Below, one piece after another: positions 1,745 to 64,000 of a DNA stretch of 64,000 nt. The position numbers were made by a program, and so were the translations under genes. This stretch comes from Gracilariopsis chorda. Taxonomy: Eukaryota > Rhodophyta > Florideophyceae > Gracilariales > Gracilariaceae. A model generated the notes under the pieces. The model was not told where the DNA came from. It saw nothing but the letters and a program-made list of their open reading frames with translations, and did not search any database. Every line of letters begins with the position of its first letter. The first letter of the stretch is position 1. The DNA is taken from contig NBIV01000004.1 of assembly GCA_003194525.1 (NCBI GenBank), positions 558,001 through 622,000 on the forward strand, in the 5' to 3' direction.

Positions 1745-3152
1745 TTATTGCCATAGTTCGTTATCGACGGCATAGCCAGATTCGACGCTGATGCATAGTA
1801 CGCCACTCGCAAGAATCTCGTTCCACAGTAGCCACGTCTTCCCGTTACGCTTGGTCAAAGCATCTGATGGGTTGCAGTCCCCTGGTATCCATCGCATATG
1901 GTTTAGCTCGTGGTAATCGAAACTGTTTCGGATACGTTGCACAGTTTAGCGGAGGCGATAGTCCCTTGCTTGGTGTAGCGTGCTCACCGTGTCGTGCAGA
2001 AATCGAGAGTCTGTGCAGAGCTCTTTCCGTACTTTCGTCGAGGGAAAGATTTAAATTAGCCCAGTCTTCAGGTAATATCCGCGGTCATCTGCCTCTGCGC
2101 ATGCCAACACCTCTGCGCCGTATGGTGAATATCTAACCCGTTTTTTTGCTGCTTGTTAAATCAAGAGCATGGTATAGGTCGATATCGTCTTTGCATTTGA
2201 TGCGCAGTCCAGTGATTAGCCCAGTTTGACCGTATCCGCTCGAGTCGGAGTGGTTGAACGACGCGTCTGAAAACGTAGAGACGATTACCTCTGTTATGTC
2301 GGATGATTGCGGTGGTGCCTTGAAGACAATCCTACACTTCATTGATAGGATATCCTTTAAGATTTCGTTCGCCATGACCAATTCCTCGACCTGGATCTTC
2401 GGCAACATTTGTTGCATGAGTGAGGTGGCGTATGCTGCGTGCGTTAGTACTGCATTTCCAAGATACATGAGTGTTGCCGCTAGAGAGCGGTATTGTTTCA
2501 CTTCTGCATCAGTTGCTGAGTCCAATCTTTGCTTGCGTCGTGCCCTGGATAAGTCAATTGGTGTTAGACGTTCTAGGTAGCGTGACATTGAGATAGTGAT
2601 GTTCCCGGCGTCATCCTGGGCAACCTCACACCCGTCGAAGTGTATCTTGTCGTCGATGATAATCTTGCCGACATCATAACGCTGTTTGAGTAGCTCTGTA
2701 AAGTTCTTCATTTTTGAACGTGTACCTCCGAGAAAGAAGTCATCCATGACCTTCACTATTAGCAGCTGTATGTTGCCGATTGTGTCGCGTTTGATAAATA
2801 GTTGCGAGATTACAAGTACCCTTTCTATTCCAGCTTGCTCGATCATCCATGTCTCGATGGTTCTCTGCCACTTCCGTCCTGCGTCTGCTATGCCATATGG
2901 CAGCTTGCATAGCTTCCATAGTGTACTGCGTTTGCTGTGCCACTCTCGCGGTGGCCTCACGAATATATCGCTTGTGATAGGTCCGCTCTGCAGGAAAGCA
3001 ACTTTGATATCTGCAGTACCGATCCTGTATCTCAAGAAAGTGACTAGCGATAGTAAGAGTCTTACAACAAAGAGTGAGGCATTTGATGAATCTTTCCTGA
3101 TCGTATCCTTCTCGTTGTCGTGATTGCCGTGTGGGACAATACGTGCCTTCAT
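1745..3152 (-). pseudogene. Copia-A reverse transcriptase and RNase H remnant
   Basis: Read right to left, 3152-2133 encodes a Ty1/copia-type reverse transcriptase (RVT_2). Visible parts are the DIKVAFLQ motif and a catalytic box reading VMDD where the family usually has YVDD. The RNase H part follows (FSDASF, SSGYGQTG), then a stop at 2133. The tail of RNase H resumes in another frame at 1942-1745, where MRWIPGDCNPSDALTK matches the usual end of copia polyproteins. The frame is broken at least twice, so no functional enzyme is expected. The 3' LTR lies 40 bp further on. Confidence 0.85.
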
Positions 3153-3742
3153 CTTCCGTGTGCCCTCTTCGTCGGTTTACACGTTGTACACGACGTGCGA
3201 GGTGATGAAGTTGGCGTAGCAGGGTACGTCGCATTCTAAGACCTCCTCATATGCTTCTGTCCAGTTGGAATCGTGTTCCTGTTTGAGCGCGTTCTGTAGG
3301 CTGAAAGGCGGTGCGAAGCTGAGTTGCGTTGCAGTGACTTGTTTGGATCCGATGACCTCGTATATGGTTTCCGATTTGCGTGATAGGTTGCGTTGCAGTA
3401 TCCTTCCGTTTATGTTCGGATCTTTGCTGCTATGAAGACTGATTGCGTATTCTCTGACATCACGGTCCCCCCCATCAGGACGATTAGTGAGCGATTGCGG
3501 AGTGGTAGCTAGAAGAAATGCTCGTTCACGGTGGTTTGAGACTGCTGTATTTTGCTAAAGTGGTTGCACATCAGATAGGAGCATGGCAGACTGCGTATTC
3601 GGAGCGTTTGGGGTTTCAGGGACTTCCTTTTCTGTCTCCTGCATGGCGAGCTCTTCTTCGAGCGAACAGAAGATTAGCTCGGCAGCAAGATTGCTCTGCG
3701 GTTTAGAGCGTAGTCTTCGTAAGTCACTCGCATAGGACGTCC

Positions 3743-6247: not shown

Positions 6248-6319
6248 GACGTTGTATAATGCCAGTCCGAGTGCACTGAGAATTCCCTTTGCTCGTTTAT
6301 CGCCGCCCTCCGCAAAGCG

Positions 6320-7115
6320 TGTGTTGCAATGCCCGGAAGCGGGAGTGCACCGAAAGACGTTCGTGATCTGTCGTCGTTAGAGGTGAGCCCAGTTGGGCAG
6401 AGCCCTTCCAGGAGTGGCACGACTATGTTGGGTTGTAAGGCCGAGAACACCCGTGGCCACTTGCGCAGGGAGGTTGATGCAAGAATCGGGTATGCGCAGG
6501 AGTGGTGTATGGGGGTGGTCGTCCTCAAGAGAGGTGAGGTTTCCACGTTAGTGGCACGTGCGAACACGAGCCATGGGTAGCGGGAAAGCCACACTGTAAA
6601 GGGAAAAATAATGGGAAGCTGAGTCACGAGTTTCGTGACGAAGACTAACGGCAGTGCCGGTAAATAAATCTTATACAATGCGAACACCAGGAAAGCTGGA
6701 ATAACAGTCCGAATATTCGTGTCCTACAGATAGGCAAAGGGGTTAGACTTCTCGTATGCGATGGTGCTTCCCTGCAAAGAGGAGTAGATAACACGCGAAG
6801 GCGGTGAGTTCTAGAGGCAATGTCCCAGGTTAGGGTCCCTTCGTGGGGATGGTTTACTGGTGCGACGGCAATCTGCCGGCGCATTAAGGACTAACCATCC
6901 CAGAAATGGGTGTAAAAATAATAAATAGAATTAAATAAATTAATCTACTTTGGTGGTTCATGCCCACTACTGTGGCCAAAATCCAATTGACTCTTCCGCT
7001 TCCTACGTGTCAAATCCACTATTCGTGGTCGTAGTTCTTGCAATGACTACATTACCGAAACATTCGGGAAATCAACCAAGTACCAAGAATCCCTCTCTGA
7101 CGGCATTGCACTTCA
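6320..7115 (-). repeat. Solo LTR of the Gypsy-A family inside Copia-A
   Basis: The 796 bp from TGTGTTGCAATGCCC to GCATTGCACTTCA align end to end with the 827-bp Gypsy-A LTRs at 50420-51246 and 59509-60335, in the same orientation. There are many substitutions and a few small indels. No internal Gypsy sequence is attached, so this is a solo LTR left by LTR-LTR recombination, or a lone inserted end. It interrupts Copia-A between the 5' LTR and gag and is therefore younger than Copia-A. The flanks (AAGCG and ACCCG) do not form a clean target duplication. Several short hairpins of the LTR are kept here although their bases differ. Confidence 0.9.
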
Positions 7116-49609: not shown

Positions 49610-50419
49610 ACACGCAGCTGATCGCACAATGATAGAGATAATTTCAATTTTCGATTCGATTCTGGGGTCCTGACTAGGACCGATTCCAGCTGTGCTGGCG
49701 AGGCGTCGGCTAGTATTTCAAACTGAACCAGGAAACACCAAAACTCCATGCCTTTCCCAGATATGAAGGCCTCGGATTGTGGTCATTCACTTCCAGCCGT
49801 CCCCGCACATGAGCTTCGTTCAACGGTTGACAACATCCACTAGGAAACTTTCCTGGAATTTCAGGTTCGCACTTTTTGAGCCGTTCAAGACAACTTTTTA
49901 AGGATATTAGAAACCCTCCATGAGGTGGAAATGGAAACCTCTACAAAGTTAGTCGCAGGGTATTTCGGTATCTTACGGTACGATGCTAACTCCATGTTAG
50001 AGAGTTTGAGACAACCCTCCACCTTCATAGAAGTAGTTGAAGTTTGAGTCGATCGAGTTCGTGTCTGTCTGGAGAAGTTAGAGCTTTTTTTTCTGATGGA
50101 TAAACCTTCCACGAATGATCTGGCATAAGCTGTTTCACACCACGACCAGCATTTTGGAAGGGAATGGAATAGATATAAGCGAAGACACAAACGAGATCAC
50201 TCGGATTCTGATTCTACGACATCATCGGACTCGTCTCAAAACGTTCCAGACGGTTCTACTTCCTCAGAATCCGACTAGAAGGACGAGTGCCGAGGCCATT
50301 CTTCCCACCCCAAGCGGTCCTCTCCAAACGAAGATTTGATGCGCACCTGCTATAATGGGAGAAGACACCTTCGTCTCAAGGAACTAAAACCGACAAACCA
50401 GTGTTATCGGAAACTAATG
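49610..50419 (+). pseudogene. Old Gypsy-A gag, first part
   Basis: Plus-strand translation parallels the young Gag: MLESLRQPSTFIEVVE against VLESLGQPATFIEGVE, LMDKPSTND against LMDKPSPDD, HSDSDSTTSSDSSQN against YSDSDSSTSSDSSRN, and RLKELKPTN against GVRELKPTN. Stops and shifts are frequent. It ends abruptly at 50419, where the young element's 3' LTR begins. Confidence 0.85.
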
Positions 50420-51246
50420 TGTGGTGCAATGCCCCAAAGGGGAAAAGCACCGAAAGACGTTCGGGATCTTCCTCTCACGAGGTGAACCCAGTTGGGTAGA
50501 GCCCTCCCAGAGGTGTCACGGCGAAGCCGGTTTGTAAGACCAGGGACACCTGTCGCGACTCGCGCAGGGAGGTGAAGGCGAAGAAACGGTATCCGCGTGA
50601 GCGGTGTGTAATCCTCAGTAGAGGTATGTTTCCACGTAAGTGGGGGCGTGTGGGCGGATGCGCACACGAGGGCCGCGGATAGCGGGAGGTGCTACCCTAA
50701 AAAGGGGGAAAAGGAAGGGCCAAGAGGAGGAAGAGAGAACGACGTGAGTCGCGAGAGTGACGAACAGATACGGCAATGCCGGTGGACAGGACTCCCTATA
50801 CAGGGCGAAACACCAATATGATTGGAACGATTATACTCCCAAGGATGGGCTTCTTTAGATGTGCAAGGGGGTTAGATGTCCCGTGGTTTACGGCGTTTCC
50901 CTCCAAGGAGGAGTAGAGTACGCGCGCAAGCGGCAACAACTAGAGCCAATTCCCCAGGTTGGGGTCCCTTGTTGGGGAAGGTTTACTGGTGCGACGGCAG
51001 TGCGCCGTCGGACTAAGTACTAGCTTCCCAGAAATGGGTGTGAAAATAATAAATAATATTAACTAAAATACTCCACATTTCGTGGCAACATCCACTACTG
51101 TGGCCAACCGCCAATTGACCCAAAACCGTGTCCCACGTGTCCATATCCACCATAGTGGGGCGTAGTTCATATACACACTACACAACCGATAATATCGGGA
51201 AAACGATCAAGTACCAAGAATCCCTCCATGAGGGCGTTGCACTACA
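50420..51246 (-). repeat. 3' LTR of young Gypsy-A
   Basis: 827 bp beginning TGTGGTGCAATGC and ending GCGTTGCACTACA on the plus strand, so the ends are inverted copies. It carries many mini-hairpins, for example 50486-50497 (ACCCA-GT-TGGGT), 50952-50964 (CCCCA-GGT-TGGGG), 51186-51198 (CCGAT-AAT-ATCGG) and 51222-51234 (CCCTC-CAT-GAGGG). Confidence 0.95.
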
Positions 51247-51257
51247 TATCCCCCCCC
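51247..51257 (-). promoter_or_regulatory. Polypurine tract of young Gypsy-A
   Basis: The plus strand TATCCCCCCCT gives AGGGGGGGATA on the element strand directly before the 3' LTR, the expected plus-strand primer. Confidence 0.75.
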
Positions 51258-51502
51258 TAAGACGGGAAAACGACCGCGGACGCGGAGGGTTCCCAGACGA
51301 AAATGGGTGATAAAAGCGCGTACGCCGTCTCCGGTTCTTCTTTCCTGGCATAGCCGGCTATTGTAGTATAGTGTTGTGGCGGCCTAGCTGCTCCCTTGAA
51401 TAAACTTTCCCGTTTAGAACGGTGATTCTCGTTTGAGTTCCCCGTCTTCGACGGACCTTGCCTTGTTATCCTTTCCTATCGCTCTCCGCTCGCGCGGCAA
51501 CG

Positions 51503-54500
51503 TTACCCAACTTGGGCATTAACCAGCGTGGCTGGGGCTGCAGTTCCCGTTTGAGGGTGGTATCGCAGGACCTGCGACCGTGGGAGGTGTTCAATTGGCT
51601 CCCACGTATCCCCACTGGGTTCGTACCCGTACCAGCGGACGCAGTATTGTAGAATACCATCCTGGTCCCAGGGTTGTCCGACAAGTCGGTCTACTACGAA
51701 CTCTCGTTCGTAGACCTGCCGGCCGTGCCGGGTGGTGGTTGTACTTCCTTGCGGGGGCTGCCCGCTGTGCGGTATAATGTCCCTTAGCAGGGTGTTCGGC
51801 GATAACTCTGGCATTGCCGTGCGCGGTGATAGCGGCCGCTGCTCATGCAGGAAGATATCCCTCAAGAGGGTGTGTGGTGCCATGGTTTTCACCGGCAAGT
51901 CATTCCCCATTAGGGCAGGTTCATTTCCGCTTTCGCGGTATTGCGGGCGAACCGCCAGTCGGCGGGGGACTTGGGTTCCGCCTTCGCGGTTGAGCTCACG
52001 AACCGCGAGTTTGCGGGAAGATGACCGCTCCTGCGGAATCGGCATTTCCACAATCCCCTGGGGGGTCCCGTGCGACACGGTGATTGGGTGGCAAACCGCC
52101 TCCCTGCCAGGCGCACGGGCGCTCTGCACCATACGTTCCGGCAATGCCGTGGTGTCCCCGGCTACTGACGGGTTGCCTGGGGCTAACTCCGGTACATCGG
52201 TATTTTGGTCAAAATTCCCCTTTGGGGGGTTCTGGGCAGGTGCCGATGACACCCTTTTCAGGGGCTTGGCCGCTAGGTGCGGGGCACCGTCTCCACGCGG
52301 AGGAGCAGCGTCCGGTATGACCGGTTTCGAGCGTGCGATGGCGTGCGCTTTTTCCGAGTTCCTCGGTTCTTCGCCGCAGCGTTGCTGGAGGTGGCGCATA
52401 TTATTCCCCGGAACGGGGGCTTCAATTCCGTCGACGACGGGAGGCGTTTCCGGCGCTTGCGGGCCAGGGCCTGAAACTTCGGCTGCGGCTTGGCTGCCTT
52501 TTTCCCCAGGAGGGGTGTGGGGATTTCCCAGCGGCGCTGGTGTATCTGGGCGCCTCTTTTCCGCAGGGCGCGGGGCTGATCGACCTGATTGAACCGCTTC
52601 CGCGGGGAGTTCCGCCAACGGCGGCTTCGAGGCATCACCCTGCTCAGGGGATTGGGGGCAATCGTCACCATACTTCCTTGTCGGAGATCCTTCCCTGACA
52701 GGGGTGTGTGGTAGTTGCGCTTCAACTTCCCGTGTAGCACGGTATATTTTCCGCCTTTGTGGCGATGCCTCCGGGGATGGATCGGGCGATTGCCTTTCCG
52801 CTGCTGCGGTATTGGAGGGAGGCTTCCCGTTTTCCCGTGACAAACAGTGTATTTGCCGCTTTTGCGGGGCCTGCGCGTCTAGTTCCTGTTGCACAGCACT
52901 GCCCGGGGACGGGGGATTAGTGTCGCGTGACATACTCCGTGCTCCACGGTCAGTGTTCCGTATGTTACGGTGTGTTTCCCGTTGCGACGGCGATATCGTT
53001 CCTCGAAAACGAGTGTTCTCCTCCCCCTCCTTAGACGGAGCGGCGGGATAAGGGATAACATTCCCCGCCTGGCGGGTATAAATGCGCGCCAGTGGGGCAG
53101 ACGTGGTAGGGGCGGGCGCTGAGAGGCCCGAATTACCCGGCTGAGCCGGTGAGTCCGACAGAGTCGGTAGGTCTGAGAGTCCCCGGCTGGGGTGTGGTAG
53201 TACCGTAGGCCTAGTACTCCCGGATGATTCCGGTGTTGCAAAGTCCGTAGAAACGGGGTTGCCTAGATCCAGGACTACCTCTGACGAGGGAGGAGGGGCA
53301 AGGACAACACGATCACTGGAAATCCGTTCGTGCGTGTCGCCCATCTCTACCACGACAGTGTCGGTGTTAACAGAGATGACCTTGAAGGGTTCATCCGCCA
53401 CAGGCGAGAGTTTGTGACGCTTCTCCCGTTCCGGGTTGTAGTACCCCTTCCTGATGAAGACGTAGTTATTTGCCCGAATCGGGGGGGTCTTTCCTCGCAA
53501 GCGAGCGTCAAAATCCCGCTTGTAAGCGGCTTGGGCCCGTGCCATAGACTTCCGCGCAGCGGGGACCAGCTTGGAAAGCCATTGCTTCCATTGCTGCCGG
53601 TAGATACCCACAGATAGGAAATTTTCCAAGGTAGCTTGGGGTTCCAGCGCCACAGGCGGGGGTGTTCTAGATAGAACCAACTCGAATGGCGAAACTCCGG
53701 TAGTCCCATGTACCTGCGTATTGTACGCGTAGGTTACCGCATCAGCGTAGAGATCCCAATTCGTTGGGTGGTCAGCGACGTAGGAACGTAACGCCGCGAG
53801 TAACGTCCGGTTAAACCGTTCAACTTGCCCATTACACTGGGGGTGGTAGGTAGTCGTGAACAAGTTCTTGACATCCAGGATGCGACAAACATCCTGGAAG
53901 AACTTGCTCACGAACTGTTTCCCGTTATCAGAGAGCACCTCCACAGGGGGACCGTAGACAAAAATCCAGTGTGTCACCAGAGCCTGGGCCACCGTGAGAG
54001 CGGTTATCCTCCGAAGAAAGACAGCCCGTACCAGCTTAGAAAAGCGGTCGGTGATGACAAGTAGAAACTTGTTTCCACGTTTTGTGGTGAGTAGTGGTCC
54101 GAGAAGATCAATTGCGATAAACTCGAGTGGCGCCCTTGCGGGGAATAGTTTCATCTTCTTCGCACTTTTGCGGAGCTTGACGCGATTCTTCGCGCATTCG
54201 CTACAGAACAGCACAGTTGCGTAGCAATCCACCGCCATTGCGGGCCAATAGAAATCCCTTCGCAGGGTTAGGTAGAGTTTCCTCCCACCTGGGTGACCTC
54301 CAATGGGGGCGTAGTGTGATAGGTGTAACACCCGCGACTGCAGGGAATGAGGTACCACAATCTGTGGGCGGGCTTCGACCTTTCTTACGAGGTAGCCTTT
54401 GTCGTTTACCCCGAAAGGGAGATCTTCACCACCGTTAAGACGGGCACGAATCCTCGTACAGAATGGGTCGCCGAATTGTTCTCGGATCATTTCTTCCGGT

Positions 54501-56518
54501 GATACCGGTACAAAGTTTCCCGGTAACGGGTTCTCAGATTCATCTCGCGATGCGAGTAGTTCGTCAAAATCAGCATCCTCGTCCCAGCTTTCTGGCCCAG
54601 CCTCGAAGGCATATTCCGGATCATCCGGGTCTATGGCCATGAAACATGGGACTTCATCATCCTCCGTTGGGAGTGCTTCCCCACTTGTGGGTAACCGCGA
54701 CAAAGCGTCGGCCTGGGTGTTCTGCGTACCCTTTTTATAAATGACTTGAAAGTCATATTCCGCGAGACGGAGTCTCCAGCGCATGAGGCGTCCCGACGGG
54801 TCGGAGATATTCATTAAGCACCTCAATGAGGAATGATCCGTGTACACGGTGAAGTGAACTCCCATAAGGTAGGGGCGCAGAGTGGTCATCGCCCATACGA
54901 CGGCGAGGCACTCTTTCTCCGATACGGAGTAGTTCCGCTCATGAACATTGAGCGAGCGCGACCAATAACCAATTGGATGTCGTTCCCCCTCGGGGGTGGC
55001 TTGAAAAAGAGCACACCCGACTTGGTAGTCGCTCGAGTCCGTATCTACGGAGTATGGGAACCCAAGTTTTGGGAGATGTAGGATTGGTGCTGATGTGACA
55101 GCCTCCTTCAAGGAGTTAAAAGCTTTCGATTGCTCGGGCGTAAATGTTCCCAGTTTTGGGGGGTTCCCCTTTCGCAACAACGCGTTTAGGGGCGCCGCAG
55201 TATCCGAAAAGTTCGGGATAAACCGTCGATAGACGTTGACCAGCCCCAAAAAGGAGCGCAGTTCCGTTTGAGTACGGGGTTCTTTCGCCTCAACGAGGGA
55301 TTTGACTCGAGCTTTCTTGATCGCTAACCGTCCAGGACGGATAATGTGACCCAGATACTTCACAGTATCTGTGAAAAACTCGCATTTCCTCAACTTGAGG
55401 GTAATTCCCGCATCGCGGAGTACGGTCAGCACGTCTCGGACGTGAGTGAGATGGTCGTCCAACGAGTTGGAGAAGATGATAATATCATCAAGGTAGACCA
55501 GACAACTCCGCCACTTAAAGCGGTTGAGTAGAATATCTACTGCACGCTGAAAGGTGGCGGGGGCGTTGGTTAACCCAAATGGCATCCGCTTGAAGCGGTA
55601 CGTTCCTGCGTGGCAGGTGAATGCGGTTTTGTCGCGATCCTCCTGTCTGACAGGTACTTGCCAATATCCCCAATTTGCATCAAGGGCCGTGAACACGGTA
55701 GCGTCTCCCAGGGAGTCAATACACTCGTCCATACGAGGGAGAGGGTACGTGTCCCTAACAGTCACGGCATTGAGCCGGCGGTAGTCGACACAGAACCTCC
55801 AGGTTCCGTCGGCCTTTAAAGCCAGTACAACTGGGGATGCCCAGGGTGATTGAGCGGGCTCAATCACACCTGCGCGGAGCATCTTGTCCACTTGGGACTG
55901 CTCCTCTTCCCGAGCTTTCGGACCTGCCCTGTAAGGGGGTTGTGCAACCGGTCGCGCACCGGGGATTAAATCGATCCGGTGTTCCGTTGCATTAATCTCG
56001 CCAAGCGAGCCATCCCACATTTTGGTGAATTCCCGTAACATAGTACGGAGTTTGTCGCGGTGCGATTCTGGCACGTGGCTGAAGTCCCGCGCTTCAAGTG
56101 CTTTTTCCGGATCAATCCGGTCGTTGCTCGACGGAGCATTGTCCTGTGGAACAGGTGTGGTTCGCAATTCCGAGTTACTCGGTATGTTCGACGCTGAAGT
56201 AGCGGTTTCCTCCCCCTCCTTAGACTTGACGTCTTCGGGCGGCGGGGCGAACTCCTCAGAAGAGGTGGTAACTCCGAGTACATCGGCGGCTGTCATCCTT
56301 GTTGGCAGCATTCCCATAGGATGTGGGGTTACACTCCCAATTACTTGGTGTTTTACCAGATACTGGGGGTGTTTGCCAAGGTTGGCAAACAATATCCGGA
56401 AAGGAACATCCGGGGAAATGGAGACAATTCCATTAGCCAGCGCCAGCTGGGATTTCTCGTACAACGAGGCGAGGGGTTGTATAACCCGAAGACCGTGTTG
56501 ACGGGAATTTACCTGCAC
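51503..56518 (-). CDS. Gypsy-A pol: RT, RNase H, integrase, proline-rich linker, chromodomain
   Basis: A 1671-residue open frame. RT lies at about 200-390, with LKADGTWRFCVDYRRLN, FKRMPFGLTNAPATFQ and the catalytic LVYLDDIIIFS near 341. RNase H has YSVDTDSSDYQVGCALF near 490, SVSEKECLAVVWAM and FTVYTDHSSLRCL. The integrase zinc finger HLSHYAPIGGHPGG with CSECAKNR is near 735-775; the core has FIAIDLLGP (about 805), VLSDNGKQF (about 862) and QCNGQVERFNRTL (about 897). A Pro/Arg/Glu-rich linker of about 500 residues follows. A C-terminal chromodomain lies at about 1595-1655 (YEREFVVDRLVGQ, YCVRWYGYEPSGDTWEP). All catalytic acids are present. It is cut from the protease by one TAA upstream. Expression would be as a Gag-Pol fusion. 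Confidence 0.93.
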   Translation of the reverse strand: MQVNSRQHGLRVIQPLASLYEKSQLALANGIVSISPDVPFRILFANLGKHPQYLVKHQVIGSVTPHPMGMLPTRMTAADVLGVTTSSEEFAPPPEDVKSKEGEETATSASNIPSNSELRTTPVPQDNAPSSNDRIDPEKALEARDFSHVPESHRDKLRTMLREFTKMWDGSLGEINATEHRIDLIPGARPVAQPPYRAGPKAREEEQSQVDKMLRAGVIEPAQSPWASPVVLALKADGTWRFCVDYRRLNAVTVRDTYPLPRMDECIDSLGDATVFTALDANWGYWQVPVRQEDRDKTAFTCHAGTYRFKRMPFGLTNAPATFQRAVDILLNRFKWRSCLVYLDDIIIFSNSLDDHLTHVRDVLTVLRDAGITLKLRKCEFFTDTVKYLGHIIRPGRLAIKKARVKSLVEAKEPRTQTELRSFLGLVNVYRRFIPNFSDTAAPLNALLRKGNPPKLGTFTPEQSKAFNSLKEAVTSAPILHLPKLGFPYSVDTDSSDYQVGCALFQATPEGERHPIGYWSRSLNVHERNYSVSEKECLAVVWAMTTLRPYLMGVHFTVYTDHSSLRCLMNISDPSGRLMRWRLRLAEYDFQVIYKKGTQNTQADALSRLPTSGEALPTEDDEVPCFMAIDPDDPEYAFEAGPESWDEDADFDELLASRDESENPLPGNFVPVSPEEMIREQFGDPFCTRIRARLNGGEDLPFGVNDKGYLVRKVEARPQIVVPHSLQSRVLHLSHYAPIGGHPGGRKLYLTLRRDFYWPAMAVDCYATVLFCSECAKNRVKLRKSAKKMKLFPARAPLEFIAIDLLGPLLTTKRGNKFLLVITDRFSKLVRAVFLRRITALTVAQALVTHWIFVYGPPVEVLSDNGKQFVSKFFQDVCRILDVKNLFTTTYHPQCNGQVERFNRTLLAALRSYVADHPTNWDLYADAVTYAYNTQVHGTTGVSPFELVLSRTPPPVALEPQATLENFLSVGIYRQQWKQWLSKLVPAARKSMARAQAAYKRDFDARLRGKTPPIRANNYVFIRKGYYNPEREKRHKLSPVADEPFKVISVNTDTVVVEMGDTHERISSDRVVLAPPPSSEVVLDLGNPVSTDFATPESSGSTRPTVLPHPSRGLSDLPTLSDSPAQPGNSGLSAPAPTTSAPLARIYTRQAGNVIPYPAAPSKEGEENTRFRGTISPSQRETHRNIRNTDRGARSMSRDTNPPSPGSAVQQELDAQAPQKRQIHCLSRENGKPPSNTAAAERQSPDPSPEASPQRRKIYRATREVEAQLPHTPVREGSPTRKYGDDCPQSPEQGDASKPPLAELPAEAVQSGRSAPRPAEKRRPDTPAPLGNPHTPPGEKGSQAAAEVSGPGPQAPETPPVVDGIEAPVPGNNMRHLQQRCGEEPRNSEKAHAIARSKPVIPDAAPPRGDGAPHLAAKPLKRVSSAPAQNPPKGNFDQNTDVPELAPGNPSVAGDTTALPERMVQSARAPGREAVCHPITVSHGTPQGIVEMPIPQERSSSRKLAVRELNREGGTQVPRRLAVRPQYRESGNEPALMGNDLPVKTMAPHTLLRDIFLHEQRPLSPRTAMPELSPNTLLRDIIPHSGQPPQGSTTTTRHGRQVYEREFVVDRLVGQPWDQDGILQYCVRWYGYEPSGDTWEPIEHLPRSQVLRYHPQTGTAAPATLVNAQVG

Positions 56519-56731
56519 CCAGACTTGGGACTCAGCCGGTATAGAAACCGAGGCAGCGACGCGGAGCTTGGTGGACTCGCGGGACGCGGGCGGTGGTTCC
56601 TGCGCAGCAGGGAGCGGAACTTGTTTCCGAGAGGACCGCTTTAGCGGGCGGCGAACAATCGGAACCGACGATCCGTCGTCAAGTTCTACACGCCTGAGGC
56701 GGGGCCTGATTGCGTCGACAAATCTATTGCA

Positions 56732-57228
56732 TTAATCACATCCCAGTATCACTGGTGCTGCCAATGAACGGCAAACGATGAAGTCCAACTTCACCACAGA
56801 GGTACCAAGTCTCATGACGAGGTACACTGTGCCCACCGTTTGTAACGGATTGTTGTTCGCATCCGAAATGTCGGGGACCGCGTCAGAGCGGATACGAGAC
56901 CGCACAGGCGGGGGTAACAATGATTCCACAACAAAGTTGGGGTCTGCACCTGTATCCAGGACGGTGAGAAACCTCACCATAAACTGGGGGTCAAGGCCAA
57001 GGTCGGCATAGACCTTATAATTGCGTTTGGCCAAGACCAAGACTCTACCGGGAATCCGGGGATTTTTACTCCGTATCCACGGGCGACGCAACACACCGAG
57101 GTGCGCAGAGTCCGCGTCAGCGGTGTCTTTCCTCGAGAGGACTTTCACCGGGGAGCGAGGCGAGGACGCCTCGGGCGCCAACAGCCTCGTTTTTGAGGAC
57201 GCCTCTCCCAAAGGGGAGACTCCCTCAG
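56732..57228 (-). pseudogene. Gypsy-A aspartic protease, start of pol, ended by a premature stop
   Basis: The pol frame opens beside the gag stop and includes the retropepsin site FLTVLDTGADPNFVVESLLP and the later motif LDFIVCRSLAAPVILGC. At 56732-56734 it meets TAA, after which the same frame continues without break into the RT frame (CNRFVDAIRPRLRRVELDDG). The old copy has TAC (Tyr) at this codon (61.. kb region, CGYCERFVD), so the stop is a single-base change in this copy. With it, RT and integrase would not be made unless the stop is read through. Confidence 0.82.
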
Positions 57229-57260
57229 TTAGTTTTCCGCCTTCGGCGGTGGATTGGTTT
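57229..57260 (-). promoter_or_regulatory. Candidate -1 ribosomal frameshift site between gag and pol
   Basis: On the element strand gag ends GCG GAA AAC TAA. The pol frame is -1 relative to gag and is open across this point. The heptamer G-GAA-AAC (57232-57238) resembles relaxed -1 slippery sites with an AAAC A-site, and a hairpin CTCCC-CTTT-GGGAG follows within about 10 nt. A -1 slip here would make a Gag-Pol fusion and fits the usual 5:1-20:1 Gag to Pol strategy. It is inferred from sequence only. Confidence 0.45.
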
Positions 57261-59403
57261 CCTCGAAAACGAGTGCTTCATCCCGTTGACGGGGGTTTCT
57301 ATCCGCATAAGCGGGGGTTGCAACGGATGGTTGCGTGATCTCCCGAATCGGGGTGTATGAAGCTTGCCGCGCACGCGGGATCTGAGGTAGGGCATGGGAA
57401 AAGTCCGTTTTAGCACGGAGGTAGGAAGCCGTCGGGACGGAACGTTTCTCCTGTGGAGTGAGGGCCTCATAATTTGCCACCACCCTGGCCATATCCTTCA
57501 GTGAACAAATACAATGAGGTGAGGTATGGCCATGGGCATAGCACAGGTGGCAAATCAGAGCCAATACCGCGACACGCGGATTATTATTCCGAGTATCGGA
57601 GAAGCGAACCGCAGGGCGGGTGTCAGTCCATCCAAGCCGTTGATAACGGGATTGACCGTTTGAAAACGGGAGTCGTTGGGGTTGAACCCGACTGTTACCA
57701 CTGTACAAAACGGGGTCTTCCGTTCCCGTATCACGGGTCATCTCCGTCGTTGACGGTAAATCACTGGTGGGTATCGACACACCATCCTCCTGCACCAAAT
57801 GCACGGTATCAAATCCCTGTGCAGGGTTCCCATCCGCGGTGAGCGGGAGTGAGGAAGCTTCGCTTTCCAGCAACAACGCCTTGGCGGACTTAGACCGATT
57901 GTTCGGAGTTCTTGCACGAAGTGCATCCCCTCCCGCTCGGGCGTGTTGAACCAGCTCGAGGTAGGTGATCCTCCGCTTGTCCTTCCGATAACGGGTAACT
58001 AAACTCCGGATTGCCGGGTCAAGACCATCGATGAACATGGTACTGCGCTCCCCAGAGGGGTAAACGTTACCACATCTGTGGAAAGCCTTGTTAAGGCGCA
58101 CCGAGTAATCGGTCTCGGTCTCTCCAGCACGCTGGCGTGTATCTCGCAAAGCGAGGATAGCCTGCTGAATAGCGGTGTTTGTGGCGTATGAGCGCAGAAA
58201 ATACTGCACAGCCTCCGGCCAGCAAGTAACTCCTCCCTCGGAGGCACGAGAAGATTCTCTGACAGATTTGTATTGGTCCTCCGCCACTCCCCGTAAGAAA
58301 TACGGTAAAGCCAAATAGGCTTGTCCCTCATTCATACCGAGGATATCGGCCTCCGCTACAAAGCGGGATAGGAAATCCAGTACTAGGACTGGGTCCTCTC
58401 CAGTAAAATACTGGTTGCGGAGCGAGAGCTGCATTCGGTTAATGCATTCTCGCACCTTTCCCGTACCACGGGGCGTACGTCCAAATGACGAGTCTTCGAG
58501 CCGGTAGCACTGGTATGATAAAAGCTTCCGGTAATCCGAGTTTGTCGGTTTCAATTCGCGGACACCGGGGTGTCTTCTCCCCTTCTGGCGGGTTCGGACC
58601 ACACCTTCCGTGGCCAATGACCGCTTCGAGCGGGAGGAGTAGCCTCGCTTCTCGTCCTCAGAGTCGGAGTCCGAGGAGCTCGAGCTAACCGAATGGTTTC
58701 GGGATGAGTCCGACGATGTCGAAGAATCGGAGTCCGAATATTTTCGGTGGTGTTTCCGTCGATGACGGCGTTTCTTCTTCCCAGCAACCTGGTCGTTGTG
58801 CGAGGCCTCGTTTACCGGATCATCCGGGGATGGTTTGTCCATGAGGACGAACTGCTCCAGCGTCTCCAGGCGGGCACCAATCCGATCAAATCGGGCTTCA
58901 ACTCCTTCAATGAAGGTGGCGGGTTGTCCCAAACTCTCCAACACGGAGTTGACGTCAGACCGTAAAATACGGAGTTCCTCGGCGACCTCCTTTACGGGGG
59001 TTGCCAAGACCACCTCTTGGAGGGATTTTTGTTCCCCTACAAGGGTGTCATGGGCGGTCCACAGAGCGCGGACCTGGGATTCCAGGGAATTCCCCTGGGG
59101 GTTGTTATCGCCCGTTCCACGGGGGCTTGAAGCCGCGACAGCGGGAGCAGGCCGGGGTGCCTGGGGCACTGCGGCAACAGCCGGAGCCGATGCTGCATTC
59201 CCCTGCGGGGGTGATAACGAGGGCAAAAGGAGGTTCCGGGGTTCCCGGTCGGGGGTATCATTCCGCGATGAAGCGGCGCCAGTACGGCTGGAACTTGTCC
59301 GTATAGGGATACGGGTTACGAACCGAACTTCGGAAGTGTCGGCGTTGTCGCGGGAGCGACTACGCGTAACCACTGGCTCCGCATCGGAGGGATTTCTCGA
59401 CAT
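57229..59403 (-). CDS. Gypsy-A Gag
   Basis: An intact 724-residue frame starting at ATG 59403 (MSRNPSDAEPVVTRSRSRDN), about 105 bp after the 5' LTR. The N-terminal 110 residues are Pro/Ala/Ser/Arg-rich. A helical stretch follows (LRILRSDVNSVLESLGQPAT), then a basic and Ser/Asp-rich segment (KKKRRHRRKHHRKYSDSDSS). The Gag core is at about 320-480 (YFTGEDPVLVLDFLSRFVAE, YFLRGVAEDQYKSVRE, TDYSVRLNKAFHRCGNVYPS). Near the C-terminus LALICHLCYAHGHTSPHCIC is a zinc-knuckle-like C-x2-C-x4-H-x4-HC arrangement. It would assemble the cytoplasmic particle and bind RNA. It ends just before the -1 frame of pol. Confidence 0.9.
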   Translation of the reverse strand: MSRNPSDAEPVVTRSRSRDNADTSEVRFVTRIPIRTSSSRTGAASSRNDTPDREPRNLLLPSLSPPQGNAASAPAVAAVPQAPRPAPAVAASSPRGTGDNNPQGNSLESQVRALWTAHDTLVGEQKSLQEVVLATPVKEVAEELRILRSDVNSVLESLGQPATFIEGVEARFDRIGARLETLEQFVLMDKPSPDDPVNEASHNDQVAGKKKRRHRRKHHRKYSDSDSSTSSDSSRNHSVSSSSSDSDSEDEKRGYSSRSKRSLATEGVVRTRQKGRRHPGVRELKPTNSDYRKLLSYQCYRLEDSSFGRTPRGTGKVRECINRMQLSLRNQYFTGEDPVLVLDFLSRFVAEADILGMNEGQAYLALPYFLRGVAEDQYKSVRESSRASEGGVTCWPEAVQYFLRSYATNTAIQQAILALRDTRQRAGETETDYSVRLNKAFHRCGNVYPSGERSTMFIDGLDPAIRSLVTRYRKDKRRITYLELVQHARAGGDALRARTPNNRSKSAKALLLESEASSLPLTADGNPAQGFDTVHLVQEDGVSIPTSDLPSTTEMTRDTGTEDPVLYSGNSRVQPQRLPFSNGQSRYQRLGWTDTRPAVRFSDTRNNNPRVAVLALICHLCYAHGHTSPHCICSLKDMARVVANYEALTPQEKRSVPTASYLRAKTDFSHALPQIPRARQASYTPIREITQPSVATPAYADRNPRQRDEALVFEETNPPPKAEN

Positions 59404-59492
59404 GAGAAAATACCGTTACGACGGGAAACGATCACGGAACTTCCGGTAAACAAAAACAAACGTCGTAAGAGGGAAAACAAAAACCGATTCTA

Positions 59493-59505
59493 GGTCGGGA
59501 GACCA
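59493..59505 (-). promoter_or_regulatory. Primer binding site of young Gypsy-A
   Basis: The plus strand reads GGTCGGGAGACCA, ending in CCA like a mature tRNA 3' end; the element RNA carries TGGTCTCCCGACC starting 3 nt after the 5' LTR. This is classic 3'-end tRNA priming, in contrast to the half-tRNA type in the Copia elements. I did not identify the tRNA. Confidence 0.75.
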
Positions 59506-59508
59506 CTT

Positions 59509-60335
59509 TGTGGTGCAATGCCCCAAAGGGGAAAAACACCGAAAGACGTTCGGGATCTTCCTCTCACGAGTTGAACCCAGTTGGGTAGAGCCCTCCCAGA
59601 GGTGTCATGGCGAAGCCGGTTTGTAAGACCAGGGACACCTGTCGCGACTCACGCAGGGAGGGGAAGGCGAAGAATCGGTATCCGCGTGAGCGGGGTGTGA
59701 TCCTCAGTAGAGGTATGTTTCCACGTAAGTGGGGGCGTGTGGGCGGATGCGGACACGAGGGCTGCGGATAGCGGGAGGTGCTACCCTAAAAAGGGGGAAA
59801 AGGAAGGGCCAAGAGGAGGAAGAGAGGACGATGTGAGTCGCGAGAGCGACGAACAGATACGGCAATGCCGGTGGACAGGACTCCCTATACAGGGCGAAAC
59901 ACCAATATGATTGGAACGATTATACTCCCAAGGATGGGCTTCTTTAGATGTGCAAGGGGGTTAGATGTCCCGTGGTTTACGGCGTTTCCCTCCAAGGAGG
60001 AGTAGAGTACGCGCGCAAGCGGCAACAACTAGAGCCAATTCCCCAGGTTGGGGTCCCTTGTTGGGGAAGGTTTACTGGTGCGACGGCAGTGCGCCGTCGG
60101 ACTAAGTACTAGCTTCCCAGAAATGGGTGTGAAAATAATAAATAATATTAACTAAAATACTCCACATTTCGTGGCAACATCCACTACTGTGGCCAACCGC
60201 CAATTGACCCAAAACCGTGTCCCACGTGTCCATATCCACCATAGTGGGGCGTAGTTCATATACACACTACACAACCGATAATATCGGGAAAACGATCATG
60301 TACCAAGAATCCCTCCCTGAGAGCGTTGCACTACA
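59509..60335 (-). repeat. 5' LTR of young Gypsy-A
   Basis: 827 bp, same length as 50420-51246. By eye the differences are 13 substitutions in the first 345 bases, none in roughly the next 450 and 3 in the last 40. The internal hairpin CCCTC-CAT-GAGGG of the other LTR is broken here (CCCTC-CCT-GAGAG). Confidence 0.95.
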
Positions 60336-61500
60336 TAATTTCATACCGGCATTACCGGCTCGAATATTCCTCTTTAGGACGTACACCTCTGATACGAGGA
60401 AGGTGGAAAAATGCATAAAAAGTATACAACTCTCCCTGCGTAACCAGTGTTTTACTGGAGAATACCCAATTGCGGTGTTGGAATTTCTTTCTCGTGGTTT
60501 TTTGGAAGCCAATATAATCGGAATGAATGAAAGACAAGCCTATTTGTAATTACCGTTGTTTTTAAGGGGACTGGCGGAGGACCATTACACTTCTGTAAGA
60601 AGATCATCTCCTGACTCAGAGAGAGAAAAGACCTGCTGGTCGGAGGAGGTGCAATATTTGTTGCGCTCCTGTGCCACAAATACCGCCATTCAGGGGGAAA
60701 TCCTCGCTGTTCGAGATAACCCTCAGTGTTTGGGCGATACTGAAACCGAGTACTCGGTGCTTTTTAACAAGGCCTTCCACCGTTGTAGGATTGTATACCC
60801 CGCAGCCAAGCGTTGTAACATTTTCATTTATGGCCTTCATCAGGCAATCCAGAGTTTTGCCACCGGTTCCCGCGAAGACAAGCGCAGAAGTATTTAACTC
60901 GAGCTTGTCCAACACATTCGAGCCGAAGGGGACGCCCTTTTTGCTAGAACTCCGAATCATCAGTCTAAAACCGCCAAGGTGTTGATGATGGAAAGTGAGT
61001 CCGCATCGCCATCGCTTCTAGCGGATAGAACTCCCCAATAGAGATACGACGCTGTGCATTTAGCACAGTGAAATGGTGTGTCTATACCAACCACGAACTT
61101 TCTGGCAACGACGGAGGACATGTTCGAAGTCGTGCACCAAAACCACGACTTGTACGTGGGGAACAACCGCTTTCAGCCACCATGAGTCCCTTTAATGAAC
61201 GGTTAATCCCCTTATAAACTGTCTGGATGGAATGACACCCACCCTGCGGTACGCTTCTCCGATGCTCAAGATACTAATCGTGGCGTCGCGATGCTGGCTC
61301 TAGTTTGGCTCCTTGGCTACCCCCTGGCTATACCTCCCTTCAGTGTCTTTGGACACTGAAGGATATGGCCAAGGTGGTGGAAGATTACGAGGCCCTCACT
61401 CCCGAGGAGAAACGTTCCGTCCCAACCGCATCCTAACTCCATGCTGTAAGGGACTTCTTACATGGAGTGCTGCATAATCCGCGTGTGTGACTAGCTTCAA
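60336..61500 (+). pseudogene. Old Gypsy-A gag, second part
   Basis: Coding similarity resumes at the first base after the young LTR: ISYRHYRLEYS against LLSYQCYRLEDSS, then KCIKSIQLSLRNQCFTGEYP against ECINRMQLSLRNQYFTGEDP, and SVLFNKAFHRCRIVYPAAKR against SVRLNKAFHRCGNVYPSGER. Later pieces include LEDMAKVVEDYEALTPEEKR-like sequence near 61360-61430. Stops and shifts are common. Confidence 0.88.
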
Positions 61501-61505
61501 ATACC

Positions 61506-62640
61506 ATGGCTCGGGAAACCGCGCAACCGTCCGACGCAACCACCGCTTACACAGATAAGAACCTCGGCCTCCGGAATGAAGCTCTAGTGTTCAATGATCC
61601 TAGACTATCGCCTGAGGTGGTACTCTCAGGAAAACAAACTGAGAGAGTCTTCCCTTCGAGAGAAGCGTCCCCAGAAATGAGGCTGTTGGCGCCCAAACCG
61701 GCGCTGCCCGGCTCGTTGGTGAAAGACCTCTCGAGACAGGACACCACTCACGCGAACTCTGCACAATTTTCCGTTCTGCATCGTCCATGTATATGGATAA
61801 AAAAACCCTAATCCCTGATAGAGTCTTGGTCACCGCCAAGCGCAATTACAAGGCTTAGGCCGACCTTGGCCTTCACACCCATTTTATGGTGAGATTTTTA
61901 AAAGTCCTGGACACAGGTGCAAACCCCAAGTTCGTCGTGAAGATGCTGCTACTCAAGCAGATGCGGTATCGTATCCTGTCCAAGATGGTCCCCGACGTCG
62001 CAGATGCGAAACATAATCCATTGAAAACGGCTGGTACCGTTGACTTAGTCGTGCGGTTGGGCTCCTCCGTAGCGAAGCTCGACTTTATTGTTTGTTCGTC
62101 ATTGGCCGCTCCAGGTATACTGAGATGTGGTTACTGCGAAAGATTTGTCGACACAATCCGGCCCTTTCTTAAGCGTAGGAAACTCGACGCAGATCGTCAG
62201 TCCCGATCCCCGGTCACTCGCTGAAGCGTGCTTCGCAGAAGCACGTCCAAATACCGCGCAGGACCCACCACTCGCGTCCCACGATTCCATCGAACTATTT
62301 TTATACCGCTGAAGTCCAAAATCTGGGTGCAAGTCAACTGCCGCCAACACCGTCTTCGGGTCATTCAATCCATGTCCCCTTTATACAAGAAATACCAGCT
62401 TTCTTTGGGGTTCGGAAGTGTTCACGTTACCCCGAACGCTTCTTTCCGGATACTCGCTGCCAATCTTGGTCAATGCATCCCGTATCTGGTAAAAAACCAA
62501 GTAATTGGCAGCGTTAATACGTATTCTCTTGGGATGCTCCCGACGAAGATGACGACAGCCAAAGTTCTCGCAATGGCCCCCGATTTTGGGGAAGTCGCCC
62601 ATACCCGCGATGAATTTTCGCGAAAGTAGGGGGATGGAAT
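61506..62640 (+). pseudogene. Old Gypsy-A gag end, protease and linker
   Basis: 61506-61811 fuses the end of Gag and the start of Pol in one frame (ALVFNDPRLS, GKQTERVFPS, MRLLAPKPALPGS), with the slip-site bases GGAAAAC still present but without the gag stop. The protease site FLKVLDTGANPKFV lies near 61886-61930, and the DFIVCSSLAAPGILRCGYCE motif near 62090-62130. 62228-62629 matches the start of the young RT frame (VQVNCRQHRLRVIQ, SFRILAANLGQ). Interrupted by stops. Confidence 0.85.
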
Positions 62641-64000
62641 CGTTGTTTTAACGTCGAATACCCCGAATAACCCAGAACCAATGGCCTCAACTGTATCCAA
62701 GGACAATTCTCCAATGAGATCTGACCGAGTAGACCTCTTCACGCTTGAGGAGATAGACCTCAGCCACGTGCTGGGGTTACATCCCCATAAGCTCCGTGAA
62801 ATATTACTGGAATTTACTACATGTGGGATGGCTCTATCGGCTAGATTAATGCTACGGAACACCGGATTGATTTGTTACCGGGTGCACGTCCGATGGCATA
62901 ACCCCCTTACAGGACAGGGTTGAAATCTTGGTAAGATGAGCAGTTTCAAGTAGAAAAATGCTCCGCGCAGGTGGGATAGGGCCCGTTGAATCATTCTGGG
63001 CATTCCCAGTTGTACCGGCTCTAAAGGCCGATGGAACCTGGAGGTTCTGCGTCGACTATTGCCGGCTCAATGCCGTGACTGTTACGGACACATATACCAT
63101 CTCTCATATGTACGAGTGCATCGAATCCCTCGGAGACGCCACTGTGCTCACTGCATTGGCTGCCGATTGTGGATATTGGCAAGTAACTATTAGACAGGAA
63201 ATTCGCAACAAAACTGCGTTCCCCTACTATGCAGAATCATACCGCTTTAAGCGGATAGCGTTTGGTTCGAGAAAATCCCCCAGTACCTTCCAGCGTGCAA
63301 TAGATATCCTATTGAACCGCTTCAAGTGGCGGAGCTGCTTGGTCTACCTAGATGGTATTATAATATCCTCCAATAACGTGAACGACCATCTCCCCCATGT
63401 CATGGACGTTTTGACCGTACTCCGCGATGCAGTAATTAATCTTAACCTGAGAAAATGCCAGTTTTCACGGATACGGTGAAGTATCTGGGACGTATTATTC
63501 GTCCCGGACGGTTGATGATCGAGAAAGCTCCAGTCCAATACCTAGTTGACGCCAAGGAACCCGTACCCAAACGGAACTTAGCTCCTTCTTGGGGCTGGTC
63601 AACGTGTATCGACGGTTTATCCCGAACTTTTAAGATATCGTGGCATCTTTCAACGTGTTGCTACGCAAAGTAAATCGCCCATAACTGGGACAATTCACGC
63701 CCAAGCAAGCGAAATCGTTTAACTCCTTAAAGGAGTCTGTCATGTCTGCAACCATCTCACTCTCATGCAAACTGGGACTTCCGTACTCAGTGGTCAGGAA
63801 CTCGAGCGACTACTAATTTGTTTGTGCTCTTTTCCAAACAACCCTAGATGGGCACCGAAGGCCAATTGGTTACTGGTCACGCTCACTCAATGTGCACGAG
63901 CGGAATTATTCTATGTCGAAGAAAGAGTTTCTTGCCATCATGTGAAAACTTTCCACCCTACCTCTCTCTCATGGGAGTTCTTCTCACCATGTACACTGGT
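62641..64000 (+). pseudogene. Old Gypsy-A reverse transcriptase and RNase H, cut by the window edge
   Basis: Frame 62958-63479 keeps a long RT stretch: ALKADGTWRFCVDYCRLN, GYWQVTIRQEIRNKTAF, YRFKRIAFGSRKSPSTFQ. The catalytic box reads LVYLDGIIISS at 63345-63365, where the second Asp of YLDD is Gly, which would abolish activity. Beyond 63480 broken frames continue into RNase H (near 63880: RSLNVHERNYSMSKKEFLAI-like) up to the end of the window. Confidence 0.87.

What the first reader, a model, noticed from the sequence alone, without database searches (positions are those of the whole stretch)
50420..60335. Whole retrotransposon saturated with short perfect hairpins, in coding and non-coding parts alike
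Seen directly: in 55328-55654 (327 nt of the RT gene) I find ten perfect palindromes with stems of 5 bp or more: 55328-55340, 55352-55371, 55388-55400, 55430-55444, 55458-55471, 55475-55489, 55528-55540, 55586-55598, 55605-55617, 55642-55654. Eight can be read as a 5-bp stem with a 3-nt loop, where about 0.3 would be expected by chance. In gag, 57637-57756 has five in 120 nt; the LTRs and the 500-residue linker look the same. Other retroelements in the window do not show this density. Residues such as R-F-K-R (CGCTTCAAGCGG) suggest that codons or even amino acids follow the hairpin pattern. Possible meanings (inference): RNA packaging or stability scaffold, protection from or exposure to small-RNA silencing, protein-binding sites for Gag, or a mutational process such as template switching that perfects near-palindromes. 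I know of no described element with this property.
Basis: seen in the sequence. Interest (0 to 1): 0.92.

Follow-up and report, generated by a model that had tools for sequence, protein, structure and literature searches.

The report
Retrotransposon genome built of tiny hairpins
A jumping gene in a red seaweed carries about two hundred mini-hairpins of one design along its whole length, apparently kept by selection, which looks like a code in its RNA that some protein, perhaps the element's own shell protein, reads.

Summary
Host: the red alga Gracilariopsis chorda. The element (50420-60335, minus strand, Ty3/Gypsy with chromodomain) holds 206 non-overlapping hairpins of one design, 5'-CC-stem-loop-stem-GG-3', 9-14 nt, often followed by A; shuffles give 24.2+-4.2. 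They fill both ORFs, LTRs and spacers; neighbours favour 6-9-nt gaps. Codon shuffles give 27 instead of 125 in pol. In 14 copies of a linker piece, shared variants hit 9 of 324 stem, 29 of 127 loop and 129 of 853 other sites, while private ones hit all alike; an RT piece agrees, a third piece shows no difference. Six related families also carry excess hairpins, with differing end-pair preferences; some hairpins covary. The flanking A follows the genomic RNA strand, in LTRs and under an antisense ORF too. Best explanation: dispersed recognition signals on genomic RNA, probably for Gag packaging (inferred, no binding data). RNAi shielding is the main rival. Eight literature searches listed nothing like it.

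The parts
50420..60335 (-). Ty3/Gypsy-type LTR retrotransposon carrying the hairpin array (206 non-overlapping CC...GG hairpins); ends TG...CA, 5-bp target duplication with one mismatch at 50415-50419 (TAATG) and 60336-60340 (TAATT)
   Evidence: LTR repeat and Pfam domains; hairpin count and ends
50420..51246 (-). 3' LTR, hairpin-rich (21 CC hairpins counted in 50414-51248)
   Evidence: 97.6% identical to the 5' LTR over the 840 aligned bases; count
59509..60335 (-). 5' LTR, hairpin-rich (19 CC hairpins counted in 59502-60336)
51503..56518 (-). pol ORF: reverse transcriptase, RNase H, integrase, long linker, chromodomain; 98 non-overlapping CC hairpins
   Evidence: Pfam RVT_1, RT_RNaseH, Integrase_H2C2, rve, Chromo; count
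56732..57211 (-). frame with the protease-like sequence AKRNYKV...LDTGA, separated from RT by a stop in this copy (protease by motif, recalled; no Pfam match)
   Evidence: translation; same sequence start in L041-L046
57229..59403 (-). gag ORF, 724 aa: N-terminal helices (102-188), Ser/Arg-rich basic stretch, capsid-like domain (about 297-500), CCHC knuckle with helical extension (about 609-671); 49 CC hairpins
   Evidence: homologues, AlphaFold model, Foldseek capsid matches, count
55586..55598 (-). example hairpin (R-F-K-R), paired in five of seven families in four different sequences
60341..63996 (+). older, inverted, decayed relative (gag-pol part), 72.8% identical, most hairpins decayed or absent
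49822..50415 (+). gag part of the same older relative, split off by the insertion
6319..7115 (-). related LTR (about 70% identical) with 11 CC hairpins, some with compensated inner pairs

Best explanation
The genomic RNA of this Gypsy clade is written as a string of mini-hairpins of one design (5'-CC-NN(N)-loop-N'N'(N')-GG-3', often followed by A, about one per 48 nt, neighbours preferably 6-9 nt apart) that a protein reads by stem and end pairs. Shown: the array, its polarity, its spacing, its conservation in two of three regions, some covariation, and the strand on which its flanks are asymmetric. The family differences in preferred end pair would be a coevolving lock and key.
For: Design and polarity: 56 of 82 (5 bp, 3 nt) hairpins begin CC, 2 begin GG; 206 against 24.2+-4.2 in shuffles. 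Whole-element coverage including LTRs, no clear reading-frame preference. Spacing: gaps of 6-9 nt 42 observed, 18.3+-3.9 expected; 0-2 nt 1 observed, 13.8 expected; in subfamily L009 40 against 21.0 and 1 against 15.9. Strand: A directly 3' of the hairpin 103 of 206, T directly 5' 33 of 206; same direction in the LTRs (12 v 3, 10 v 3) and where the long open frame runs antisense (17 v 5 in L009, 14 v 4 in L015), so it follows the genomic RNA and not the coding strand. Selection: shared polymorphism stem 9/324, loop 29/127, elsewhere 129/853 in the linker piece; stem 16/575, loop 25/193, elsewhere 194/2557 in the RT piece; private variants in the linker piece 34/324, 15/127, 89/853. Covariation: in eight LTRs 6 cells changed on both sides, 1.5+-1.0 in shuffles, 0 of 500 reach it; the S-V-S/P-E hairpin is paired in six of seven families with four different wobble pairs. 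Family differences: L045 TCC...GGA 18 against 2.2 expected; L041 and L044 CC; L042 TC, CG, CC; L046 CG, CC, GG. Gag has a capsid-like domain and a CCHC knuckle.
Against: No binding, packaging or structure-probing data. G-U pairs are not favoured over A-C in near-perfect stems (77 and 109 of 1241; at distances of 30-34 nt 104 and 124 of 856); among shared variants G-U and A-C are 6 and 3; selection on RNA folding alone should tolerate G-U clearly more. Sense and antisense strands fold about equally well (mean z -4.01 and -3.75). The third region shows no protection of stems (shared 4/212 against 18/772, p = 1; little divergence). In the RT piece private variants too are fewer in stems (27/575) than elsewhere (176/2557). 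In the LTR test the structure was taken from the aligned sequences themselves, and sliding the partners by -2 gives nearly as much covariation (4 pairs, 4 cells, score 0.035 against 4, 6, 0.039); further pair types do not exceed shuffles (152 of 500 reach it). Between families compensated changes exceed isolated pairs only slightly (0.425 against 0.346). The flanking-A bias is absent in the 710 nt between the ORFs (5 v 5) and not consistent in the other families. Family end preferences rest on 2.7-kb pieces. Nothing here singles out Gag over a host RNA-binding protein.
Confidence: 0.42

Rival explanations
1. Generic RNA-structure shield: closely spaced short stems deny Argonaute guides or nucleases a free target, without a dedicated reader protein.
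For: The host encodes two long Argonaute-like ORFs and two ORFs with paired RNase III domains. Counting hairpins with any ends (350), 14.3% of 21-nt windows are free of hairpin bases (no shuffle control made). Local folding energy is far below shuffles.
Against: Does not explain CC...GG polarity, the following A or the family end preferences (GG...CC ends are as stable by nearest-neighbour rules, recalled). CC hairpins alone leave 42.2% of 21-nt windows free, and 20 of 205 gaps exceed 80 nt. G-U pairs are not tolerated more than A-C.
Confidence: 0.22
2. A host RNA-binding protein (export, translation or granule factor) reads the hairpins, and the element exploits it.
For: Same sequence evidence as the best explanation; the array also covers the LTRs and the antisense-ORF region.
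Against: Families in one host differ in preferred end pair; sequence outside clade matches stays low in the 20-locus sample (1.70 against 9.9 per kb).
Confidence: 0.15
3. The signal acts on the minus-strand cDNA during or after reverse transcription (folding, pausing, strand transfer, nuclease protection), not on RNA.
For: Near-strict Watson-Crick pairing without G-U preference; the A/T asymmetry fits the complementary strand equally; copies look mosaic, several hairpins being broken together in the same three of nine copies at alignment columns 2824-3368.
Against: No known need for about 200 sequence-biased hairpins in cDNA (recalled); family end preferences would need a DNA-reading protein.
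Confidence: 0.1
4. Mutational artefact: template switching in reverse transcription perfects near-palindromes, with no function.
For: Palindromes are near-perfect; one hairpin is exactly inverted between el and L009 (CCCTGCGAAGGG and CCCTTCGCAGGG); the third region shows no stem conservation.
Against: Such a process would copy mutations into the other arm and let stems drift; instead stems vary less in two of three regions and compensated changes are 6 of 623 stem pairs at 8% divergence. Polarity 56 CC to 2 GG, spacing and hairpin positions shared between families remain unexplained.
Confidence: 0.06
5. Base composition, codon usage or chance.
For: The element is GC-richer (0.52-0.62 per 1-kb bin) than most of the window.
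Against: Codon and dinucleotide shuffles; GG...CC hairpins, equal in composition, are not enriched likewise.
Confidence: 0.01

Closest known systems
Multiple dispersed RNA packaging signals of single-stranded RNA viruses (MS2 and others; review PMC6281560, passages seen)
   Same: Many stem-loops along the genome sharing a recognition feature and varying otherwise, proposed to bind the shell protein and promote assembly.
   Different: For MS2 the passages place the shared feature in the loop and a bulge; here loops are free and the shared feature is the end pairs, often with a following A. Here the array also fills LTRs and an antisense frame and belongs to an LTR retrotransposon, and no binding has been shown.
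Genome-scale ordered RNA structure in RNA viruses (recalled; search listing only)
   Same: Whole-genome excess of RNA folding beyond shuffles.
   Different: Here excess pairing is local (7-13 nt among the distances tested), uniform in size and polar in sequence.
Ty3, Ty1 and HIV-1 genomic RNA structure (PMC11381356, abstract, outline and section 29 read)
   Same: Same replication type; structured regions dispersed along the RNA.
   Different: Described there as a mosaic of stable and dynamic regions, adenosine-rich RNA (Ty3 about 36% A), with tRNA annealing, dimerization, cyclization and packaging sequences at the 5' end; no uniform hairpin array in the section read.
Palindromic mini-elements of organelle genomes (PstI palindromes, GC clusters; recalled, no call)
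   Same: Short GC-rich palindromes in many places, some beginning CC and ending GG.
   Different: Those are inserted copies of one sequence; here the inner sequences differ widely and hairpins sit inside conserved codons.

Membership tests
Ty3/Gypsy LTR retrotransposon with chromodomain (chromovirus-like) | LTR pair; RT, RNase H, integrase in that order; chromodomain at the Pol C-terminus | tested here: met
   LTRs 97.6% identical; Pfam order RVT_1, RT_RNaseH, Integrase_H2C2, rve, Chromo
Ty3/Gypsy LTR retrotransposon with chromodomain (chromovirus-like) | Gag with retroviral-type capsid fold and CCHC knuckle | tested here: met
   Foldseek top matches dARC1, PNMA2, Arc and HIV capsids, prob 0.98-1.00 but best E only 2.6e-3 and none at or below 0.001; model mean pLDDT 61.7, blocks of 321-500 at 76-96; C-x2-C-x4-H-x4-C in the translation. 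No Pfam match for Gag
Ty3/Gypsy LTR retrotransposon with chromodomain (chromovirus-like) | primer-binding site and phylogenetic place in the chromovirus clade | not tested
   no PBS search and no tree made
Dispersed RNA packaging signals | many stem-loops along the genome with a shared recognition feature | tested here: met
   206 CC...GG hairpins; that the shared feature is recognised is not shown
Dispersed RNA packaging signals | stem-loops conserved or covarying between relatives | tested here: met
   LTR covariation modest with one slid control close; no conservation in one of three regions
Dispersed RNA packaging signals | sequence-specific binding by the shell protein and effect on assembly | not testable with these tools
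   needs binding and packaging assays
Genome-scale ordered RNA structure | pairing at all ranges, G-U tolerated, no fixed sequence | tested here: not met
   pair excess at 7-13 nt only among distances 1-25, 40, 60 and 100; G-U not favoured; CC...GG polarity
Mutational palindrome correction | arm-to-arm copying, hence stems drifting by double changes | tested here: not met
   6 compensated pairs of 623 at 8% divergence; stems vary less than surroundings in two of three regions

The most novel reading that the evidence does not exclude
Red-algal Gypsy families carry a hairpin code over their entire RNA, each family with its own preferred end pair, read by its own Gag so that each family packages its own RNA: a self/non-self recognition system spread over about 200 sites and imposed even on codons, LTRs and an antisense frame.
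Probability: 0.3. Interest if true: 0.95.

Novelty: new variant of a known kind. Interest (0 to 1): 0.85.

Why it matters
Genome-wide RNA signals are hard to see in RNA viruses because each site is weak and variable. Here the sites are uniform, numerous, present in many copies per genome and apparently held by selection, with natural family variants in one host, so the question whether shell proteins read many dispersed hairpins becomes directly testable. It also shows codons, and at times perhaps amino acids, bending to a pairing constraint over a 10-kb selfish genome.

Tried and rejected
Mutational origin, DNA-level action and chance were considered and ranked down (see rivals). Pairwise stem conservation is not used as main evidence, because hairpins found in one copy are by choice unmutated there; the multi-copy counts replace it. 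These carry a milder bias: pseudo-hairpins chosen likewise give 0.051 (RT) and 0.100 (linker) against 0.028 and 0.028 observed, and counting every hairpin seen in any row gives 25/635 (0.039) for RT and 9/324 for the linker. Compensation between families is only slightly above isolated pairs. Insertion into hairpins as landing pads: the one insertion examined lies beside, not in, a CC hairpin; not pursued. The viral-contig search confirmed no relative. DNA of the metagenome relatives and of the Agarophyton chilense Gag relatives was not available, so the pattern outside G. chorda is untested. Literature searches. Seen: listings (a capped part of the hits) with abstract starts, passages of PMC6281560, and abstract, outline and one section of PMC11381356; one search returned nothing; none of what was listed describes such an array.
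Full report
WHAT IT IS. The window lies in the genome of the red alga Gracilariopsis chorda: an HSP90 gene of the same assembly is 100% identical to the G. chorda protein (and, over the part compared, to one of Gracilaria vermiculophylla), and the contig length listed for the G. chorda protein, 261561 bases, is that of contig C102 (lineage). The element at 50420-60335 on the minus strand is a Ty3/Gypsy-type retrotransposon: LTRs 97.6% identical, TG...CA ends and a 5-bp target duplication with one mismatch, gag ORF 57229-59403, a protease-like frame at 56732-57211 cut off from RT by a stop in this copy, and pol 51503-56518 with RT, RNase H, integrase, a long linker and a chromodomain. It is inserted, in reverse, in an older relative. 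The clade is large: matches to pieces of this element cover 20.7% of 20 arbitrarily chosen loci of 10 kb.

THE OBSERVATION. All ten palindromes of the finding exist as described. Counting perfect stems by loop length shows the excess at loops of 1-6 nt, with peaks at 3 and 4, and none at loop 0. The excess of complementary base pairs lies at distances of 7-13 nt (of 1-25, 40, 60 and 100 tested). The letters give the main new fact: the hairpins share a design. Of 82 hairpins with a 5-bp stem and 3-nt loop (both LTRs counted), 56 begin CC and end GG, 2 begin GG and end CC; inner pairs and loops vary. Non-overlapping CC...GG hairpins of 9-14 nt number 206, one per 48 nt, against 24.2+-4.2 in 30 dinucleotide shuffles. 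Codon-preserving shuffles give 26.6+-5.5 for 125 in pol and 10.3+-3.5 for 65 in gag; starts fall 38, 38 and 49 over the three codon positions in pol and 17, 21 and 27 in gag. LTR, linker, spacers and domains are all dense (19.7-32.1 per kb; the 94-nt gap before gag has one).

ARRANGEMENT. Gaps between neighbours are not random: 42 of 205 are 6-9 nt (18.3+-3.9 expected), 1 is 0-2 nt (13.8 expected), 8 are 14-18 nt (18.2 expected); subfamily L009, about 92% identical over 6.9 kb, shows the same. The base after GG is A in 103 of 206 and the base before CC is T in 33 of 206; a signal equal on both DNA strands would make these alike. The bias keeps its direction in the LTRs, where T exceeds A overall (12 v 3 and 10 v 3), and in a region where the long open frame runs antisense (17 v 5 and 14 v 4), but not in the 710 nt between the ORFs (5 v 5), and it is not consistent in the other families. 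So in this family it follows the genomic RNA or its complement, not the coding strand.

SELECTION. In 14 copies of a 1.3-kb linker piece, sites with variants shared by two or more copies are 9 of 324 in stems, 29 of 127 in loops and 129 of 853 elsewhere, while variants private to one copy number 34, 15 and 89. In nine copies of the RT piece: shared 16/575, 25/193, 194/2557; private 27, 18 and 176, so there stems are somewhat poorer in private variants too. Part of this is due to how hairpins were picked: pseudo-hairpins chosen in the same way give 0.100 (linker) and 0.051 (RT) against 0.028 and 0.028 observed, or 0.039 for RT if every hairpin seen in any copy is counted. A third piece, the 3' region of nine copies, shows no difference (4/212 against 18/772), with little divergence to judge by. 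The linker piece thus looks like selection during the active life of elements and neutral decay after insertion. Compensated changes occur: T-A in 8 and C-G in 6 of 14 copies at one pair. In eight LTRs, 6 cells changed on both sides against 1.5+-1.0 (0 of 500 shuffles reach it) and 89.7% of cells paired against 32-47% for slid partners; but the structure came from these sequences, one slid version (-2) comes close in covariation (score 0.035 against 0.039), and the number of further pair types is as in shuffles.

OTHER FAMILIES. Eight further loci (L041-L048, RT pieces of about 2.7 kb, six families, 57-73% identical to each other and to this element in a codon alignment of one piece each) have 28-46 stems of 5 bp or more against about 14-17 in mononucleotide shuffles; two control stretches of the window have 21 and 18 against about 14-15. 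The weakest, L043 (28), is therefore only moderately above background. Preferred ends differ: CC in this element, L041 and L044; TCC and CC in L045; TC, CG and CC in L042; CG, CC and GG in L046; CC and CG in L043. Hairpin positions are shared between families above an offset control in most pairs, to which plain sequence similarity contributes. Over all pairs of families, however, compensated changes exceed isolated pairs only slightly (0.425 against 0.346). In the 20-locus sample, 410 CC hairpins (9.9 per kb) lie in stretches matching this element and 269 (1.70 per kb) elsewhere; of 26 kilobases with 8 or more, 22 overlap a match and 4 do not (L013, L015, L016, L025), of which the one in L015 lies in the 3' region described under Noticed in passing.

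MECHANISM. Shown: a polar, spaced hairpin array of one design over the whole element, conserved in two of three regions and in part covarying, asymmetric on the genomic RNA strand, with family-specific ends. Inferred: it works on genomic RNA and is read by a protein, because base pairing alone would not fix CC...GG over GG...CC nor differ between families in one host. The likeliest reader is the element's own Gag, which has a capsid-like domain and a CCHC knuckle followed by predicted helices. This resembles dispersed packaging signals proposed for RNA viruses (PMC6281560, passages). Against it stand the lack of preference for G-U pairs, equal folding of both strands and the absence of binding data. 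RNAi shielding is the main rival: the host has two Argonaute-like and two Dicer-like ORFs, but CC hairpins leave 42% of 21-nt windows free.

NOVELTY. Eight literature searches listed no described retrotransposon with such an array; only listings and parts of two papers were seen. The kind of thing it works like, genome-wide RNA signals, is known from RNA viruses; a polar array with family end preferences in LTR retrotransposons would be a new variant.

Noticed in passing
L015 2787-4560 (and L009 1-1685; parts in L010, L031-L033, L035-L037, L039): Ten of the family copies held carry, in whole or part, about 1.7 kb between pol and the 3' LTR that is missing in the window copy and L034 and mostly missing in L040; in L015 it has a 540-codon antisense open frame (longest same-direction frame in L009 358 codons), with no Pfam match above threshold. 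It is hairpin-rich too (13.5-20.6 per kb).
   Followed up: partly
genome contigs C483, C648, C777, C944, C882, C626 and others: 44 partial Piwi-domain matches on both strands, several about 8.0 kb apart: apparently a repeat family carrying decayed Argonaute-like sequence.
   Followed up: no
window 49822-50415 and 60341-63996: The element sits inside an older inverted relative, a nested insertion within its own clade.
   Followed up: partly
alignment of RT pieces of nine copies, columns 2824-3368: Several hairpins are broken together in the same number (three) of nine copies; the 40 copies scored show 100% (rounded) identity in 327 nt of RT, while seven of them compared over about 3.3 kb are 92.5-98.2% identical to the window copy. 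Copies look like mosaics of subfamilies.
   Followed up: no
L013 8000-9000: A hairpin-rich kilobase (8 CC hairpins) without match to this element.
   Followed up: no
el and L009, hairpin CCCTGCGAAGGG / CCCTTCGCAGGG: A hairpin exactly inverted between two subfamilies.
   Followed up: no
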